The notes under the pieces: model-generated
Databases searched by the model: none
The model's input: only the letters and a program-made list of their open reading frames with translations
Told to the model about the DNA's origin: nothing
DNA from: Bacteroidota bacterium
GTDB taxonomy: Bacteria > Bacteroidota > Bacteroidia > Chitinophagales > LD1
Reading direction: 5' to 3'
NCBI GenBank assembly: GCA_018267365.1
Contig: JAFDYQ010000017.1
Span: 1-64,000, forward strand
Length of the DNA: 64,000 bases
Program-made: the position numbers and the translations under genes
Shown: positions 480 to 16,210 of the stretch, piece by piece
How positions within the stretch are numbered: position 1 is the first letter of the stretch
Layout: each line of letters starts with the position of its first letter

Positions 480-2087
480 ATGGCCGCACAGACCATGTCC
501 GTATTCCGATCTAAGATCAACCGCAACTCCGAGAGCTACCAGCGCAATCTGCTGCAGATGCAGGATAAAATAAAAGAGCTGGAGGGCAAGCAAAAAGAAG
601 CGCTCTTTCAGGGAGAGGCTAAATACCTGGAGCGTACCAAAAAGGCGGGACGCCTGCTGGCCCGCGAGCGCATCGAGCTCTTGCTAGATCAGGATTCGCC
701 GTTTATGGAGCTGCTACCCTTTGCAGGCTGGGGTATGGACGGTTTCGGTACAGGTGGCACCATAGTAGCAGGTATAGGTTTTGTCAGCGGGCGGCTGTGC
801 ATGCTGAATTCTAATATCGGCACCATCAAGGGCGGTGCAGTAGACTATGCAACGCTACAAAAGGGGCTGCGCATAGGTGAGATAGCGCGCGACAATCATC
901 TGCCGATGATCAATATGGTAGAATCTGCCGGCGCCAATCTTCCTGATCAGGCCAAGATATTCAACTATGGGGGTGCCAACTTTCGCGAGATCACGCGCAG
1001 GTCTCAGGCCGGCATTCCTACTATATCTGTGGTTTTTGGCAGCAGTACGGCTGGAGGTGCGTATATACCTGGCATGTCTGACTATGCCATCTTTGTGAAG
1101 GATGAGGCTAAAGTATTTCTCGCCGGCCCACCTCTTGTCCGCATGGCTACCAATGAGATCACAGATGAAGAATCACTAGGTGGTGCCAGGATGCATAGTA
1201 CCATCTCAGGAGTGTCAGACTATATGGCAGAGGATGAAATGGATGCTATACGTCTGGCCCGCGAGATAGTAGCACAGCTACATGAGCCGGAGGAAGTGCA
1301 TAGGCAAAGCGCGAAAGAACCGCTCTACGACAAAGAAGAAATACTAGGTGTGGTCTCTGCAGACGTACGGATCCCATTTGACCAGCGGGAGCTGATAGCC
1401 CGTATCGTAGACGGGTCTGAGTTCTCAGAGTTCAAGCCGCTCTATGGCGCTACATTGATCACAGGCTATGCGCATATAGATGGCTACCGTATCGGCATAC
1501 TGGCCAATAATGGCGTGCTTTTCTCAGAGGCAGCCAATAAAGGTGCACAGTTCATCCAGCTTTGCAATCAGAATGATACACCGTTGCTATTCCTTCAGAA
1601 TATCACCGGCTTTATGGTGGGCAAAAAGTATGAAGAAGAAGGTATCATAAAGAATGGCGCAAAACTGATCAATGCTGTGAGCAATAGCACGGTGCCTGCC
1701 ATCACGATCATCACCGGCGCGAGCTACGGCGCGGGCAACTATGCCATGTGCGGCCGCGCTTACAGTCCACGTTTTCTTTTCACGTATCCTCAGTCGCGCA
1801 TCGCGGTCATGGGGCCTGATCAGCTGGCAGGAGTCATGCAGACCATAGGTCGCGCAGCTGCAGAGAAGTCAGGCATACAGTATGATGAGGAGCAGGGCAA
1901 GCAGATGGCCGGCTACATGGTCAAGGAGGCAGAAAAACAAAGTAACGCCTGGTATGCATCGGGCCAGCTGTGGGACGATGGTGTGATAGACCCGCGTGAC
2001 ACCCGAAACTACCTGAAGCTATGCCTGCAGGTGATACACAGGACCGAGATCAAAGGGGCCGAGGGATTTGGAGTGTTTAGGATGTAG
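480..2087 (+). CDS. Acyl-CoA carboxylase carboxyltransferase (beta) subunit
   Basis: The 535-residue protein is a carboxyltransferase subunit of a biotin-dependent acyl-CoA carboxylase (propionyl-, methylcrotonyl- or geranyl-CoA type). It would transfer carboxyl from carboxybiotin to an acyl-CoA in the cytosol. The two-lobed crotonase-like fold is evident: the N-terminal lobe has ESAGANLPDQA, GSSTAGGAYIPGMSDY and FLAGPPLVRMAT, and the C-terminal lobe has LQNITGFMVGKKYE and GASYGAGNYAMCGRAYSPRF. Length is normal for the family. The biotin carboxylase/BCCP subunit follows at 2603, separated only by the inverted-repeat cassette, so the two were probably one operon. The order of motifs is closest to methylcrotonyl-CoA carboxylase beta, but substrate cannot be fixed from sequence alone. 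Confidence 0.93.
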   Translation: MAAQTMSVFRSKINRNSESYQRNLLQMQDKIKELEGKQKEALFQGEAKYLERTKKAGRLLARERIELLLDQDSPFMELLPFAGWGMDGFGTGGTIVAGIGFVSGRLCMLNSNIGTIKGGAVDYATLQKGLRIGEIARDNHLPMINMVESAGANLPDQAKIFNYGGANFREITRRSQAGIPTISVVFGSSTAGGAYIPGMSDYAIFVKDEAKVFLAGPPLVRMATNEITDEESLGGARMHSTISGVSDYMAEDEMDAIRLAREIVAQLHEPEEVHRQSAKEPLYDKEEILGVVSADVRIPFDQRELIARIVDGSEFSEFKPLYGATLITGYAHIDGYRIGILANNGVLFSEAANKGAQFIQLCNQNDTPLLFLQNITGFMVGKKYEEEGIIKNGAKLINAVSNSTVPAITIITGASYGAGNYAMCGRAYSPRFLFTYPQSRIAVMGPDQLAGVMQTIGRAAAEKSGIQYDEEQGKQMAGYMVKEAEKQSNAWYASGQLWDDGVIDPRDTRNYLKLCLQVIHRTEIKGAEGFGVFRM

Positions 2088-2125
2088 TCAGAACAGTAAT
2101 TCATTTGATTTTTATGATTTATATG
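2087..2125 (+). repeat. Left inverted repeat of the GxxExxY cassette
   Basis: This 39-bp end pairs with 2564-2602 in reverse complement, with 30 of 39 positions identical by direct base-by-base comparison. Conserved blocks are GTC, GAAC, ATTC and TATGATT. The repeat starts on the G of the preceding TAG stop codon. Confidence 0.7.
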
Positions 2126-2142
2126 GGACGACAAATTATTTG

Positions 2143-2553
2143 ATGCCTATGATTAATGAGGATTATAAATATTCTGAGCTAACAGGTAGGATAATAAAAT
2201 CCGCCATGACCGTGCATTCTGAGTTGGGAAATGGGTTTCAGGAAGTGATATATCAGAGAGCTTTGGAGATAGAGTTTCAAAATACTGGTATCTCCTATGC
2301 TCGTGAGTTTGAAATGCCGGTTTTCTTTAAGGGTCATCAAATTGGTACACGAAGGGTTGATTTTTTAGTGGAAGAGGTAATATCAGTTGAGATAAAAGCG
2401 ACTACTGGTTTGACTAATACCAATTTTGCGCAAGCCATAAATTACCTGGAAGCTTATAATCTGGAGGTCGGACTCCTGATAAACTTTGGAGAAAATAGTC
2501 TTGTCTTCAAGAGATTTGCAAACAAGAAATTTAAGGCTCTGATAAAACGATAA
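2143..2553 (+). CDS. GxxExxY protein, PD-(D/E)XK nuclease-like
   Basis: The 136-residue protein carries the signature that names the GxxExxY family, here G31-F-Q-E34-V-I-Y37. It then has Asp73 followed by E83-I-K85, a spacing compatible with the PD-(D/E)XK nuclease motif; the family is placed in that superfamily. No substrate is known for this group. I chose the ATG at 2143. The frame stays open upstream to 2068, but that would overlap the carboxylase gene and translate the left inverted repeat; ATG at 2149 is also possible. The gene is AT-rich with non-optimised codons compared with its GC-balanced neighbours. It is the only gene inside the inverted-repeat cassette, which suggests a role in maintaining or moving that element. 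Confidence 0.8.
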   Translation: MPMINEDYKYSELTGRIIKSAMTVHSELGNGFQEVIYQRALEIEFQNTGISYAREFEMPVFFKGHQIGTRRVDFLVEEVISVEIKATTGLTNTNFAQAINYLEAYNLEVGLLINFGENSLVFKRFANKKFKALIKR

Positions 2554-5106: not shown

Positions 5107-5315
5107 AATCAGTTACTTCCCTTCTTGGGTTTCCCATTTCAGGCGCTATTTCTACATACAGTTTTCTGTACACATTGCATTGTTTTGCCCAAAGACGAAG
5201 GAATACTTTGCTCACTGTTTTGCAAAGCTCTGTCAGCCAATATTATCGCAGACGCTAATGGTAGTGGCATATCCTTTGGACGCGTTCCTTATTCCAAAAA
5301 TAAAAACTAAACAAC

Positions 5316-6788
5316 ATGGAAAGCAAGGACAAATCCAAAGGCAGCTCAGCCAAGGGCTCCAAAAACTCTTCGACCTCCTCTACAAATTCCGCTAAACAAA
5401 ATTCGAAAACTACCTCCGCTAAAAGCGGCGCTAAAGCAGATCAAACGGATATGATGGGTAGCGCATCCTCCCAGGATACATCTGAGACAAAAGGCTCTTC
5501 ATCCAAGACCCAATCATCGGGCAAAGCATCAAAATCATCGCAAAAATCTCAGGGGCAATCCGGTACCGGAGAGCAGGCCGGGTCTCAATACCAATATGGA
5601 CAGTATAATCAAGGCAGTAGCGGCCAGGGCCAGTACGGTCAGGGCGGCTCATATGGGATGCAAGACCGCCAGAGCCGGGAAAATCAACAAGGCGGCAATC
5701 AGGGCGGCTGGAATCAGCAAGACTACAATGATTATGGTCAGTACGTAGGTCACGGTGGTCAAAACTACCAAGACTCTCAGTATGGCCATCAGCAAGGTCA
5801 ATATAATCAAGGGGGTCGTGGCGGTCAATACAATCAAGGTTGGCAGGGCAATCAAGGCCAATATGGCAACCAAGGTCGGTATGATCAGGGCGGCTGGCAA
5901 AATAGTCAGGGACAGCAGGGCGGACATGGACAGTATGGCCGTAGTGAGTGGAATCAGCAGCAAGGCAATAACTATGGCCAATCCGGCGGCAGTGGTGGTC
6001 GGAATGATCGCAACCGTGGCAGCTACAATGACTACGAGCGTGGCGGCTATAACTCCGGCGACCGCTACTCTGACTATGATCAGCATGGCAATAGAAACAC
6101 CAACCGCTCTCAGCGGGACCAGTGGCAGGGCCAGGGAGGCCGCAGCGACTGGGCCAGGAATGACTATTCCGGCTACAATGATGGGGCCGGCACCTATGGC
6201 TCCCCTGACCAGCAGTCTGGCCGTGGAGACTGGGGCCGCGATCAGTATCGCAATATGGGCTCAGGCGGCCAGTACTCCGGCGGCGGCTACAATGACCGCG
6301 GTGGCAGCTACCGTGGTGAGGGCCAGTCATACTCTCAGAGCGACTATGGTCGCGGTGGAGGACGCTCATCCTACGGCCAGTCTGAAAACTATGGCGGTGG
6401 CAATGGCGGCTACAATAGCCGATACAGTGACCGCTACTGGGACGACAATGAACCATCTAATGGCAACTACGATCGCTCAGGAAACTATAGCCGGTCAAAT
6501 GACTATGACGATCAGTATGACGAATACGGCGATGATCAAAACTATAATGACCGTAACCGCCAGGGCATGGGTGAAGATGAAAACGATCACCGCTATGACA
6601 ACTATGACGAGTACGATGTAGATAGTGAGATAGATGAAGATGCAGATGATATATCTACCTCGCGCTCCAGCCGGGGCATGGGCAGAACGGGATCTGCAGG
6701 ATATGGCTCATCGGCGAGGTCTTCTTCCGGTCGCTCGGCGGGATCTCAGTCCAAAGGCTCTAAGGGCAAGTCTTCATCGCGCAAATAA
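5316..6788 (+). CDS. Prion-like low-complexity protein rich in Gly, Tyr, Gln, Asn and Ser
   Basis: The 490-residue protein has no signal peptide or membrane segment and is presumably cytosolic. I see no Leu, Phe or Cys, and only two Ile and two Val. A Lys/Ser-rich head (about 1-75) is followed by a Gly/Gln/Tyr/Asn tract with repeats such as GQYNQGG and GQYGNQG (about 85-230), and an Arg-Gly/Asp-Tyr tract with RGG and DRGG motifs (about 230-395). Next come an acidic Asp/Tyr tract (about 395-450) and a Ser/Gly/Lys/Arg tail. The layout resembles eukaryotic FUS/EWS-type low-complexity and RGG regions, which can condense with RNA; that comparison is compositional only. No known family is recognised. 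It is monocistronic and ends at a strong terminator, so it is likely a real, separately expressed gene. Confidence 0.8.
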   Translation: MESKDKSKGSSAKGSKNSSTSSTNSAKQNSKTTSAKSGAKADQTDMMGSASSQDTSETKGSSSKTQSSGKASKSSQKSQGQSGTGEQAGSQYQYGQYNQGSSGQGQYGQGGSYGMQDRQSRENQQGGNQGGWNQQDYNDYGQYVGHGGQNYQDSQYGHQQGQYNQGGRGGQYNQGWQGNQGQYGNQGRYDQGGWQNSQGQQGGHGQYGRSEWNQQQGNNYGQSGGSGGRNDRNRGSYNDYERGGYNSGDRYSDYDQHGNRNTNRSQRDQWQGQGGRSDWARNDYSGYNDGAGTYGSPDQQSGRGDWGRDQYRNMGSGGQYSGGGYNDRGGSYRGEGQSYSQSDYGRGGGRSSYGQSENYGGGNGGYNSRYSDRYWDDNEPSNGNYDRSGNYSRSNDYDDQYDEYGDDQNYNDRNRQGMGEDENDHRYDNYDEYDVDSEIDEDADDISTSRSSRGMGRTGSAGYGSSARSSSGRSAGSQSKGSKGKSSSRK

Positions 6789-6811
6789 TTTGCTGCTCAT
6801 TTTGAGGCCAG

Positions 6812-6846
6812 AGGCAGGGTATTTTACCCTGCCTTTTTATTTTTTG
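6812..6846 (+). terminator. Rho-independent terminator of the prion-like gene
   Basis: A perfect 10-bp stem (AGGCAGGGTA at 6812-6821 with its complement at 6825-6834) encloses a 3-base loop and is followed by a run of T residues to 6845. It lies 24 bp after the stop codon at 6788. Confidence 0.9.
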
Positions 6847-6892: not shown

Positions 6893-9313
6893 ATGATAAA
6901 AAGACTACTCTCACCTATTTTGCTCTTATGTCTGTCCGTATTCTCTGTCACTGCAGCCACTCCATGTTCGTCTGCATACAAACAAGTGATCGTCAATATT
7001 ACCCCTGATAATTTCCCTCAGGAAACGCACTGGAGCATACGCAATGATCTCACTAATGCGCTGATAGACTCCGGTACGGTCAATAGTGATACGATATGCA
7101 TAGACTCATCAGCCTGCCTGCGCTTTACGATCTTTGATGCCTATGGTGATGGTATCTGCTGCAACTATGGTAATGGCTCCTATCAGGTGAAACTCAATGG
7201 TGTGGTAGTGGCCAGTGGGGCCAGTTTCGGACACTCGGAGACTACATTCTTCAATTGTCATCCCGGCCATGACTGCAATAATGCTGTAGTGGCTACCAAA
7301 AATGATACAATCACAGCGCCACTGCCCGATACCTGGTATACCTATACACCGGACTCCACCGGTTTGTATAATATATTTACCTGCGGAATGGGCAATACCT
7401 GCGATACCAAGATCTACGTATATGATCACTGCGTGGGACTAGTATATACCAATGACAACCAGGGAACGATCATGTATAATGACGACAACTGCCCCAACTA
7501 TCTCTCGCTAGTCTCCGGTGCCATGCAGGCAGGTCATACTTACTATATCCGTATAGGTCAGTATGATACGAGCTGCGCACACCACTGGATACACTGGCGA
7601 ATCACATTCCAAGGTGCGATCAGGGGCTGCATGGACTCTACTTCGTGCAACTATAATCCACTGGCCACCATTCCTGATACTAACTGCGTCTATCCCCCTA
7701 GTCCGCTATGCCCCGCTCCTGACCTGGCGGTAGATGGCATAGAGCTGAAGCACTCTCTCTATCTCGATACACTCAATGTAGCCAATGGCGACTGCTACGT
7801 GAATGAGGGCTGCCTGGCGGGCTATGGCCACCGGCGACTGATCCGCTTCACCACGCACATCCGCAATATTGGTACCCAGGATTACTATATAGGTGCACCG
7901 GATACAGTGGGCAATCAATTTGTGTGGGACCCATGCCACCAGCACTGGCACTATGTGGGCTATGCAGAGTACTTGCTCTATGATCATAATAATCAGCAGG
8001 TACAGGTAGGTTTCAAAAATGGCTTCTGCGTATTGGATCTCGAGTGTAGCGGTGGCGGTACGGGCAAATTCTCCTGTGCCAATATGGGTATCACTGCAGG
8101 CTGCGGAGACATCTACAGCTCCGGCCTGGCCTGCCAGTGGATAGACGTGACCGCCATAGATACCGGAGACTATACGCTGGTAGTGCGTGTCAACTGGGAC
8201 CGCTCACCGGATAAACTCGGCCACTATGAATCCCGCTATGATAATAACTGGGCGCAGACCTGCCTTCGCCTTTACTATGGAGCCGGCGGCCAGAAGTATT
8301 TTGACACCCTCCCATCCTGCCCGCTGTATGTAGACTGTGCAGGAGACACCTTTGGCAATGCAGTGCTGGACTGTGCGCATGTATGCGGCGGCACAGCTGT
8401 GCGGGGAGATCTCAATACCAATGTGCAACGAGACTCTACTGACCTGGGCCTCTATCTCACAGGTATGACTGCCGAGACACTCGGCCGTACGGACTGCAAT
8501 GACCTCAATGGTGATGGCCACCTCAGCGTGGTAGACGCAGCACGACTCAACGGCTGCCTGCGCAAAACTGACAGCACGCTCACTACGCTGAATAATCCTC
8601 AGAGTTCGCAGCACCTCTGCGAGTTCCCGTATAATGTCTTAAACCCGCTGGACTCAGTAGTCTTTGGCATAGGCAATGTGAACTGGCAGCAGCACTATCT
8701 GGATATAAGTGTCTACAATCCACTCTGCAAACTAATGGGCTACGAACTGAAATTGAGTGGCATCACGGTAGACTCTACCAGTAATCTGGCTATAGGCAAC
8801 TATAATCCCGACATCCGTCACTCGGCATCGGGCCATATACTCGAGCTCAGCGATGAAGATCAGGCATTATTCAAACAGCTGGCTCCGCTCAATTTCCTGA
8901 GGATATATTTCAGCCATATGACAGATAGCACTATCTGCATAGCCAATGTGATAGATGCTGTAAACGAAGACTACCAGCAGGTCCTCAGTCTGAAAAAAGA
9001 TGACTGTGTCACACAGCACAGGCAGGACACCACCGGCGTGGGTGTGCAGGAAGTGCTCAGTGCTGCGGACCTGCGCATCATTCCCAATCCGTCTACCGGC
9101 TCCTTTGAGCTATATACCACGGGCCAGTCCCTATATGGCGCTGCGATACACATTTATGATGCGGTAGGCCGATCTGTCTATGATGATAGGCACTTTGACG
9201 GCTTGACCAATAAAGTGCATTTTGATATGACTGATGAGGCTGCAGGTGTCTACCTGATGCAGATCAATCTGGCTGGTACATCCGTGACCAAACGCTTTGT
9301 GATCAGCCGCTAG
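6893..9313 (+). CDS. T9SS-exported lysyl oxidase-like amine oxidase
   Basis: The 806-residue exported protein has an N-terminal signal peptide, a PPC-like beta domain (about 125-245), and a lysyl oxidase domain (about 275-460). The copper motif CHQHWH gives His349, His351 and His353. Lys375 in VGFKNGFC and Tyr408 in GDIYSSG match the pair that form the lysine tyrosylquinone cofactor in lysyl oxidases, and CQWIDVT follows as in that family. A dockerin/EF-hand-like segment (about 503-550) has two Asp-Leu-Asn loops. The C-terminus (IIPNPSTGSFELY ... KRFVISR) is a type A T9SS sorting domain. The likely role is oxidation of peptidyl or small primary amines, possibly cross-linking extracellular protein. 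Cofactor formation is inferred from conserved residues. Confidence 0.85.
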   Translation: MIKRLLSPILLLCLSVFSVTAATPCSSAYKQVIVNITPDNFPQETHWSIRNDLTNALIDSGTVNSDTICIDSSACLRFTIFDAYGDGICCNYGNGSYQVKLNGVVVASGASFGHSETTFFNCHPGHDCNNAVVATKNDTITAPLPDTWYTYTPDSTGLYNIFTCGMGNTCDTKIYVYDHCVGLVYTNDNQGTIMYNDDNCPNYLSLVSGAMQAGHTYYIRIGQYDTSCAHHWIHWRITFQGAIRGCMDSTSCNYNPLATIPDTNCVYPPSPLCPAPDLAVDGIELKHSLYLDTLNVANGDCYVNEGCLAGYGHRRLIRFTTHIRNIGTQDYYIGAPDTVGNQFVWDPCHQHWHYVGYAEYLLYDHNNQQVQVGFKNGFCVLDLECSGGGTGKFSCANMGITAGCGDIYSSGLACQWIDVTAIDTGDYTLVVRVNWDRSPDKLGHYESRYDNNWAQTCLRLYYGAGGQKYFDTLPSCPLYVDCAGDTFGNAVLDCAHVCGGTAVRGDLNTNVQRDSTDLGLYLTGMTAETLGRTDCNDLNGDGHLSVVDAARLNGCLRKTDSTLTTLNNPQSSQHLCEFPYNVLNPLDSVVFGIGNVNWQQHYLDISVYNPLCKLMGYELKLSGITVDSTSNLAIGNYNPDIRHSASGHILELSDEDQALFKQLAPLNFLRIYFSHMTDSTICIANVIDAVNEDYQQVLSLKKDDCVTQHRQDTTGVGVQEVLSAADLRIIPNPSTGSFELYTTGQSLYGAAIHIYDAVGRSVYDDRHFDGLTNKVHFDMTDEAAGVYLMQINLAGTSVTKRFVISR

Positions 9314-13789: not shown

Positions 13790-16210
13790 GTGAAAAGGCC
13801 CTTCGCATCATATCTCACTATGCGTCGGCTACTGCTCATCGCTACTATCACAGCGGCGGTGGTAGTAGTTGTTATAGCCTGTGCCTCGCCGGTAGGCAAG
13901 TACATTTTGGAGAGCTATGTCGGTCCTACAGTGCTCGGCAGGCAGGTCAAGACGAGCTGGGTATACGTCAATCCCTTCACAGGGTATGTACACATCAGCG
14001 GGCTGAAGATCTATGAACCCGGCGGAGACAGCCTCACCATCTTGAAAGCCGATGAGCTGAATGTGCATTACAACATCCTGAAAACGCTCACCAAAAATTA
14101 TGAGTTTACAGATGCAGATCTGGTGCGCCCCGTCGGTTGGATCATTCAGGATCACAAGACCTTCAATTTTTCAGACCTGATCATCCACTTTTCACCGAAA
14201 CATCCTAAGCCGCCCGGCCCTAAAGTACGACACCCTGCCCATATCAACGTACTCAACTTTAAGATCACAGACGGAGAATTCCACTACATCGAAAAGTCCA
14301 TCCCGATCAACTATTACATGAAGAATGTCAATATCTCCAGCTCCGGCAAATGGTGGGCTATTGACTCCTTTCATCTGAAGTTTGACATGGAGTCCGGCAG
14401 TGGCACAGGCACTATAAAAGGAGATGGCTATCTTGACCTCTACAAACTGGACTATGGCATAGCGGCAGTGATCAAGAACCTCGACTTGAAGATACTGGAG
14501 CAATACCTGCGCGACCTCGCCAACTATGCCAGCCTCCGCGGTACAGTAGATGCAGATATACGGAGCACGGGCAATTTTAAAGATAAGCTGGCTTTACATG
14601 CGGATGGTCCGATAGATATACATGACTTCCACGTAGGCAAATCTCCCACCTCTGATATTATCGCATTTGAGCGGTTGAGTTTCAGCATACATGACCTGAC
14701 ACCGCGGAGGTATCAGTATTGGTTTGATTCCATCGCTTTGCGGCAGCCATACTTTGTGTATGAGCGGTACGACTATCTGGACAATCTCCGGAATATGTTT
14801 GGCGCAAAGGCTGAAAAGGTAAAGGCGGCACAAGCTGACGAAACAAAATTTAACCTCATCATCGCGATAGGCAAGTATGTGAAAGTGCTGGTCAGGAATT
14901 TTCTCCAAAGCTCCTACCGCCTGGATCATTTCAATGTTTACGATGGCGATCTGAAATATATCGACTACGCGCTCCGCGAGAAATTTTACATAGGAGCTAA
15001 ACACCTGTATACGCACGCTGACTCTGTCTACAAAGACAATAGCCATATCAAAGTCACCATACGCACTGATATCAATCCGCATGGCACTTTCACTGCCAGC
15101 GTAGGTATCAATCCCGGCACCTATCAGGACTATGATCTGCACTACGACCTGCAGCGCCTGCCCGCCGCATTATTCAATCCTTACTTTGTCACATATACAT
15201 CGTATCCTGTAGATCGCGGTATCATAGAGCTGAGCGGCACTACGATCGTACAGCACGATGTAATGCACAGTGATAATCACCTCCTCGTACTGGATACCCG
15301 TGTAGCTGGCCGCATGCGCAAGAGAGACACAAAATGGGAACCCATGCCGCTGATCATAGCACTGCTGCGCAATCCCGGCAATGCTGTGGATGTCAGCTTG
15401 CCTATAGCAGGAGACCTGCACGATCCGCATTTTCAGATATGGCCGCTGGTAGGGCAGATCGTCAGAAATATAGTGATCAAAACACCGTATATACCATATA
15501 TACAGCATACTAAGGATGTAGAGAATGTAGTAGAGAAATCGCTATCACTCAAGTGGGAGCTGCGCCGGTGCGACCTGCTGGACGATCAGGACAAATTCCT
15601 GGAGCATATAGCCGATTTTATGGAGCAGTATCCACAGGCACAGATACAGGTCACATCTACTGTGTATACTGACAAAGAGAAAGAGTACATCTTGCTCTAC
15701 GAAGCTAAAAAACGTTACTTTCTGGATGCACACCACATCTCCGCTGCTGCGTTTTCTGAGGCAGATTCTATCACCGTAGACCGCATGTCCGTGAAGGATT
15801 CCGGCTTTGTCCACTATCTCACAGCGCAACCGGGTGTAGAATTATTGTATTCCGTGCAGGAGAAGGCTACCCATCTCATCAGTCCCAGTCTTATCGATCT
15901 GCGCTATGCGCAGCTTATAGAGGCCCGCAAAGAAAAATTTATGTCGCATTTCAAAAGTAATGGGACGGATAGCAGGATTCATTTCGTGAAAACACGGGAC
16001 ATCATCCCCTTTGATGGATACTCAGTCTACAAGATCGAATACCTGGGCAAAACGCCACCCGAACTCATAAAAGCCTACGACAAACTCGTAGCGCTGAATC
16101 ATGTAGACCCACGCCTGCACTATGTGGCCAAAAGGCGCGCAGTGGCGGGTATGCTGATAGATGAGCAGAAGCTCAAGCGCAATGAACAACCTGCTCAAAA
16201 GAAAAAATAA
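13790..16210 (+). CDS. DUF748-family AsmA-like envelope protein
   Basis: The 806-residue protein has an N-terminal hydrophobic anchor (LLLIATITAAVVVVVIAC) and then a long repeated beta structure of the AsmA/TamB-like kind. The section about 230-290 (LDLKILEQYLRD, RGTVDADIRSTGNF) and the section with RGIIELSGTTIVQHD to VDVSLPIAGDLHDPHFQIWPLV match the DUF748 pattern. The C-terminal ~170 residues are more helical and charged, with an OmpA-like feel (YPQAQIQVTSTVYTDKEKE). AsmA-like proteins span the periplasm and are tied to lipid transport or outer-membrane homeostasis; that role is known for the family, not shown here. A second in-frame ATG at 13820 is equally plausible as start. Confidence 0.75.
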   Translation: MKRPFASYLTMRRLLLIATITAAVVVVVIACASPVGKYILESYVGPTVLGRQVKTSWVYVNPFTGYVHISGLKIYEPGGDSLTILKADELNVHYNILKTLTKNYEFTDADLVRPVGWIIQDHKTFNFSDLIIHFSPKHPKPPGPKVRHPAHINVLNFKITDGEFHYIEKSIPINYYMKNVNISSSGKWWAIDSFHLKFDMESGSGTGTIKGDGYLDLYKLDYGIAAVIKNLDLKILEQYLRDLANYASLRGTVDADIRSTGNFKDKLALHADGPIDIHDFHVGKSPTSDIIAFERLSFSIHDLTPRRYQYWFDSIALRQPYFVYERYDYLDNLRNMFGAKAEKVKAAQADETKFNLIIAIGKYVKVLVRNFLQSSYRLDHFNVYDGDLKYIDYALREKFYIGAKHLYTHADSVYKDNSHIKVTIRTDINPHGTFTASVGINPGTYQDYDLHYDLQRLPAALFNPYFVTYTSYPVDRGIIELSGTTIVQHDVMHSDNHLLVLDTRVAGRMRKRDTKWEPMPLIIALLRNPGNAVDVSLPIAGDLHDPHFQIWPLVGQIVRNIVIKTPYIPYIQHTKDVENVVEKSLSLKWELRRCDLLDDQDKFLEHIADFMEQYPQAQIQVTSTVYTDKEKEYILLYEAKKRYFLDAHHISAAAFSEADSITVDRMSVKDSGFVHYLTAQPGVELLYSVQEKATHLISPSLIDLRYAQLIEARKEKFMSHFKSNGTDSRIHFVKTRDIIPFDGYSVYKIEYLGKTPPELIKAYDKLVALNHVDPRLHYVAKRRAVAGMLIDEQKLKRNEQPAQKKK

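What the first reader, a model, noticed from the sequence alone, without database searches (positions are those of the whole stretch)
5316..6788. Bacterial FUS/EWS-like low-complexity protein with RGG and acidic tracts
The 490 residues are almost free of hydrophobic amino acids (no Leu, Phe or Cys). Blocks run Lys/Ser head, Gly-Gln-Tyr-Asn repeats, RGG-like Arg tract, acidic Asp/Tyr tract, basic tail. The compositional match to proteins that form condensates with RNA is striking. It has a clean terminator and no signal peptide.
Basis: partly seen in the sequence, partly recalled or inferred. Interest (0 to 1): 0.78.

Follow-up and report, generated by a model that had tools for sequence, protein, structure and literature searches.

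The report
Bacterial prion-like disordered orphan protein
One group of related, uncultured Bacteroidota species carries a free-standing protein with no folded part, built like the sticky disordered regions that form droplets in our own cells and kept by natural selection; its function is untested.

Summary
Window 5316-6788 (+) encodes a 490-aa protein with no Leu, Phe or Cys, GRAVY -1.91, no hydrophobic stretch and AlphaFold2 mean pLDDT 36.9. It is not a DNA-repeat artefact. Three other genomes of the genus carry it at the same place with the same block order (76-85% identity), and dN/dS is 0.09-0.15 with dS above 1. The last ~100 residues before the basic tail are best conserved (88-95%).

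The gene is an orphan. There is no match in Pfam, NCBIfam, PHROGs, PDB, phages or plasmids, nor outside the genus in about 400 genomes each of its order and phylum. A congener lacks it between the same neighbours.

'FUS/EWS-like' holds only as a physical analogy. The core has prion-like composition (14-15% aromatic, about 60% polar), and its Tyr/Trp are spaced more evenly than nearly all shuffles. It has no RRM and no zinc finger; [G/S]Y[G/S] is not enriched and RGG hardly so. The recurring unit is QY[G/N]Q.

Best explanation: a cytosolic sticker-and-spacer scaffold that self-associates through Tyr/Trp (and Arg), with basic ends and a conserved acidic block governing binding to nucleic acid or another partner. 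Condensation and RNA binding are inferred, not shown. Main rival: a hydrophilin-type stress protectant.

The parts
5316..6788 (+). CDS of the 490-aa low-complexity disordered protein
   Evidence: orthologs in G001, G004, G005; dN/dS 0.09-0.15
5316..5585 (+). Residues 1-90: Lys/Ser/Ala-rich basic head, no Tyr (net +7)
5586..5990 (+). Residues 91-225: Gly/Gln/Tyr/Asn sticker block with QY[G/N]Q units; most indels between orthologs fall here and just after
5991..6425 (+). Residues 226-370: Gly/Tyr plus balanced Arg and Asp (18 R, 17 D/E), not a true RGG tract
6426..6659 (+). Residues 371-448: acidic Asp/Tyr block (net -22), the best conserved part together with residues 361-370
6660..6785 (+). 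Residues 449-490: basic Ser/Arg/Lys tail (net +10, no acidic residue)
6810..6844 (+). Intrinsic terminator; hairpin and T-tract alignable in G004 and G005
5107..5315 (+). Upstream intergenic region with blocks conserved among the four carriers (promoter/5' leader, not assigned); no Rfam match; not repeated elsewhere in the genome
4663..5106 (+). Flanking gene: FKBP-type prolyl isomerase lipoprotein, marks the syntenic site
6893..9313 (+). Flanking gene: lysyl-oxidase-domain protein with type IX secretion tail, marks the syntenic site

Best explanation
It is a genus-restricted, cytosolic, fully disordered 'sticker-and-spacer' scaffold protein. About 50 evenly spaced Tyr/Trp residues, helped by Arg, in a Gly/Gln/Asn/Ser background make the chains associate reversibly into a condensed phase. 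The Lys/Ser head and Ser/Arg/Lys tail supply positive charge for nucleic acid or another polyanion. The strongly conserved acidic Asp/Tyr block competes with or tunes that binding, or docks a partner. It would probably be made under a particular condition (its own conserved leader and terminator) and gather RNA, RNA-binding proteins or other clients. Shown here: real gene, predicted disorder, composition, block order, aromatic patterning, purifying selection, autonomous locus, narrow distribution. Inferred: condensation. More weakly inferred: nucleic-acid partner, regulation and clients.
For: Disorder: mean pLDDT 36.9, no residue at 70 or above (single shallow alignment); GRAVY -1.91. Core composition (residues 90-441): 14.8% aromatic, 60% polar, 22% ionizable, against 15-20% aromatic and 60-70% polar with uniformly placed aromatics reported for prion-like low-complexity domains (PMC9748015). 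Aromatics are more even than 1999 of 2000 shuffles in the window protein, and than at least 1995 of 2000 in each ortholog. Controls Q, G, D, R and S are not, but Asn is also fairly even in the orthologs. The signal persists when the two halves are tested apart, although one half in G001 and G004 is only p 0.09-0.12. Tyr is conserved more than other residues (37/45 against 297/445, p 0.02). Aromatic number stays at 49-52 despite indels. dN/dS is 0.09-0.15. The phylum has a precedent: the Bacteroides Rho IDR, with a prion-like subdomain and short conserved charged motifs, drives RNA-dependent condensation (PMC13269538). The host has small RRM proteins with Gly/Tyr-rich tails as possible clients.
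Against: No experiment of any kind. Net charge is slightly negative (pI 5.6), and RGG/RG motifs are not clearly enriched, so RNA binding is not specifically indicated. The four orthologs are related, so their pattern statistics are not independent, and part of the evenness comes from repeat-like QY[G/N]Q units. The composition also fits a hydrophilin. The gene is not conserved next to any RNA-related gene.
Confidence: 0.5

Rival explanations
1. A hydrophilin/LEA-like stress protectant: an abundant, highly hydrated disordered chain that shields proteins and membranes in drying, freezing or osmotic stress without forming specific condensates.
For: Gly 20.2% and GRAVY -1.91 meet two of the three published criteria. 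[quoted passage not shown]
Against: Mean Hopp-Woods hydrophilicity is 0.45, not above 1 (the scale used in the paper was not verified). It has eight Trp. Even aromatic spacing and a near-invariant acidic block are not required of a simple protectant. No known LEA or hydrophilin motif.
Confidence: 0.25
2. A nucleoid- or RNA-associated polyelectrolyte whose basic ends bind nucleic acid and whose acidic block regulates release (histone-H1-tail-like), without phase separation.
For: Basic Lys/Ser head (+7) and Ser/Arg/Lys tail (+10, no acidic residue) flank a conserved acidic block (-22).
Against: The aromatic patterning would be unexplained. Overall charge is negative (pI 5.6).
Confidence: 0.12
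3. An extracellular matrix or adhesive polymer, possibly cross-linked through its Lys by the lysyl-oxidase protein encoded next door (elastin-like).
For: The gene lies immediately upstream of a lysyl-oxidase-domain protein with a type IX secretion tail in three genomes (the G001 contig ends before it). Gly/Tyr/Gln repeats resemble structural polymers.
Against: No signal peptide or hydrophobic segment, and the frame closes four codons upstream of ATG. A strong terminator separates the genes. G006 keeps the oxidase without the disordered protein.
Confidence: 0.06
4. A spurious or decaying frame made of DNA-level repeat expansion.
For: Low-complexity composition; indels in the QY block.
Against: dN/dS 0.09-0.15 with dS above 1, open frame in four genomes, only two small tandem arrays; antisense frames are not conserved.
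Confidence: 0.01

Closest known systems
Prion-like low-complexity domains of FUS and hnRNPA1 (FUS-LCD, A1-LCD)
   Same: Polar Gly/Ser/Gln/Asn background, about 15% Tyr-dominated aromatics, aromatics evenly spaced, disorder, Arg as auxiliary sticker.
   Different: No RRM, zinc finger or enriched RGG/[GS]Y[GS]; carries a conserved acidic block and basic ends; free-standing; no sequence homology detected.
IDR of transcription terminator Rho of Bacteroides thetaiotaomicron (BtRho)
   Same: Same phylum; prion-like N/Q-rich part plus short charged stretches that are the conserved motifs (PMC13269538).
   Different: There the IDR is a segment of a folded ATPase; here the whole protein is IDR, and Tyr/Gly/Gln-rich rather than K/E- and N/Q-rich.
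Hydrophilins / LEA-like proteins
   Same: Gly above 6%, GRAVY below -1, depleted of hydrophobics, Phe and Cys, rich in Gly, Asn, Gln and Tyr.
   Different: Lower mean Hopp-Woods hydrophilicity (0.45); eight Trp; patterned aromatics; no LEA motif.
Small RRM proteins with Gly/Tyr-rich tails of Bacteroidota (present in this genome; same RRM class as Bacteroides RbpB)
   Same: Tyr/Gly-rich low-complexity sequence in the same cell.
   Different: They have a folded RRM and short tails; the window protein has no folded domain.

Membership tests
FET family (FUS/EWS/TAF15) | RRM domain | tested here: not met
   No Pfam match up to E 10 in any of four orthologs
FET family (FUS/EWS/TAF15) | RanBP2-type zinc finger (Cys) | tested here: not met
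   No Cys in the protein; no Pfam match
FET family (FUS/EWS/TAF15) | SYGQ-type repeats ([G/S]Y[G/S] enriched) | tested here: not met
   3-4 found against 5.4-5.9 expected; the enriched unit is QY[G/N]Q
FET family (FUS/EWS/TAF15) | RGG boxes | tested here: inconclusive
   RGG 2-4 against 1.2-1.4 expected; RG at expectation
Prion-like low-complexity domain (physical class) | 60-70% polar, about 15-20% aromatic | tested here: met
   Core residues 90-441: 60% polar, 14.8% aromatic, at the lower edge
Prion-like low-complexity domain (physical class) | Uniform spacing of aromatics | tested here: met
   Gap CV 0.59 against 0.89 in shuffles, 1 of 2000 as low; similar in orthologs
Prion-like low-complexity domain (physical class) | Intrinsic disorder | tested here: met
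   Mean pLDDT 36.9, GRAVY -1.91; prediction only
Prion-like low-complexity domain (physical class) | Phase separation in vitro or in vivo | not testable with these tools
   Needs an experiment
Hydrophilins | Gly above 6% and GRAVY below -1 | tested here: met
   20.2% and -1.91 (criteria from PMC4190154)
Hydrophilins | Mean hydrophilicity above 1 | tested here: not met
   Hopp-Woods mean 0.45; the scale used by the paper was not verified, and its own hydrophilin pool lies between -0.3 and 1
Hydrophilins | Induction by or protection from water stress | not testable with these tools
   Needs an experiment

The most novel reading that the evidence does not exclude
A lineage-specific bacterial orphan that is a complete, free-standing prion-like condensate scaffold, convergent with eukaryotic FUS-like domains in aromatic patterning, which organises RNA or RNA-binding proteins in an uncultured Bacteroidota genus.
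Probability: 0.3. Interest if true: 0.8.

Novelty: new variant of a known kind. Interest (0 to 1): 0.52.

Why it matters
The bacterial condensate driver compared here (BtRho) carries its disordered region on a folded enzyme. A whole protein made only of evenly spaced Tyr stickers with charged blocks, preserved by selection over saturated synonymous divergence and apparently confined to one clade of a genus, would show that bacteria can invent and keep free-standing prion-like scaffolds. It would also give a compact natural test of the sticker-and-spacer grammar outside eukaryotes.

Tried and rejected
Homology searches: Pfam, NCBIfam, PHROGs, PDB, phages, plasmids and viral contigs gave nothing. 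Profile search of 30 family, 398 order and 395 phylum genomes found only the four carriers. A degenerate pattern for DRYWDDNEP found the four carriers plus one two-mismatch hit in G213 that encodes N rather than D, taken as chance. The QY[x]QG pattern shows no cluster in G002, G003 or G006 and none in the matches listed for other genera; that list was cut. No paralog in the own genome even at E 10. Antisense ORF 5431-6456 (-) rejected: its open length is not conserved. The upstream region is not a shared regulon element and has no Rfam match. SWFGD-type low-complexity proteins were considered from memory; the motif is absent, and the paper search gave no relevant hits. PLAAC and catGRANULE were not available and their parameters were not reconstructed from memory.

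Full report
OBSERVATION. The ORF at 5316-6788 (+) is present as described: 490 aa, no Leu, Phe or Cys, 20% Gly, 16% Ser, 13% Gln, 9% Tyr. Among 140 stop-to-stop frames of at least 100 aa in the window it is the extreme outlier for lack of LIVFMC. The terminator is real. There is no signal peptide or membrane segment.

REAL GENE, UNDER SELECTION. They keep the place after the FKBP gene and, where the contig continues, before the lysyl-oxidase gene, and the same block order. Protein identities to the window are 84, 84 and 76%. NG86 dN/dS is 0.09-0.15 with dS 1.1-1.7 between distant pairs; the neighbouring enzymes give 0.03-0.10. Synonymous sites are thus near saturation while the protein is held. 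Only two small tandem arrays exist at DNA level. Residues 361-460 are 88-95% identical; the indels concentrate in 91-270.

DISTRIBUTION. No relative outside these four: none in 30 family, 398 order and 395 phylum genomes by profile, and none in phages, plasmids, viral contigs, Pfam, NCBIfam, PHROGs or PDB. HMMER's bias correction handicaps low-complexity queries, so a diverged analogue could be missed; two degenerate-DNA patterns also found no sign of one. G006, which is further from all four carriers by the carboxylase protein (79-81% against 84-98% among carriers), has FKBP and lysyl oxidase with a TauE/SafE fragment between them and no such gene. A single gain in the carriers' ancestor is the simplest reading; a loss in G006 is not excluded.

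ANATOMY AND MECHANISM. AlphaFold2 gives mean pLDDT 36.9 with no structure (four-sequence alignment, so low confidence supports disorder but does not prove it). The core (90-441) is 14.8% aromatic, 60% polar and 22% ionizable. Published prion-like domains are 60-70% polar and 15-20% aromatic, with aromatics uniformly distributed (PMC9748015). Here aromatic gaps have CV 0.59 against 0.89 in shuffles (1 of 2000 as low), and 0.54-0.63 in the orthologs; Q, G, D, R and S show no such evenness, Asn a weaker one. Tested by halves, the evenness holds in both halves of G000 and G005 and in the first half of G001 and G004. Tyr is more often conserved than other residues (p 0.02), and aromatic number stays at 49-52 through the indels. 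This is the grammar expected if Tyr/Trp act as stickers. The basic ends and the conserved acidic block suggest charge-regulated binding, as in BtRho, where short charged motifs control RNA-dependent condensation (PMC13269538). That last step is analogy only.

COMPARISON. As a member of the FET family it fails: no RRM, no zinc finger, no [G/S]Y[G/S] enrichment, RGG inconclusive. As something that may work like a FUS or A1 low-complexity domain it passes composition, spacing and predicted disorder. Hydrophilin criteria are met for Gly and GRAVY but not for mean Hopp-Woods hydrophilicity. The host also has three RRM proteins, two with Gly/Tyr tails, which could be clients; no link was tested.

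VERDICT. Real, selected, disordered orphan with prion-like sticker patterning. Condensate scaffold is the most likely reading (0.5), hydrophilin the main rival (0.25). Not FUS/EWS by membership.

Noticed in passing
window 6893-9313 (+): Secreted lysyl-oxidase-domain protein (PF01186, E 2e-34) with a type IX secretion tail; relatives occur in parts of the family and order. Bacterial lysyl oxidases are little studied.
   Followed up: partly
window 2068-2553 (+): PD-(D/E)XK nuclease-superfamily gene (PF13366, GxxExxY type) sits between the two carboxylase subunit genes in G000, G001, G004 and G006; none was detected there in G005.
   Followed up: partly
L059 5249-5623 (-): In G006 a 122-aa TauE/SafE piece (matching only the second half of PF01925) occupies the place between FKBP and lysyl oxidase where the disordered-protein gene lies in the carriers.
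   Followed up: partly
L001, L003 (own genome C26, C32): Small RRM proteins with Gly/Tyr-rich low-complexity tails (SYGGGG.. and SRGGYGGGG..), candidate partners of the disordered protein.
   Followed up: partly
window 5140-5315: Blocks of the upstream region (ATTTCTACATACA, GCATTGTTTT, GTGGCATAT.CTTTGGA) are conserved in the four carriers; promoter or leader role unassigned.
   Followed up: partly
window 13790-16210 (+): 806-aa DUF748 (AsmA-like) protein, strong Pfam match.
   Followed up: no
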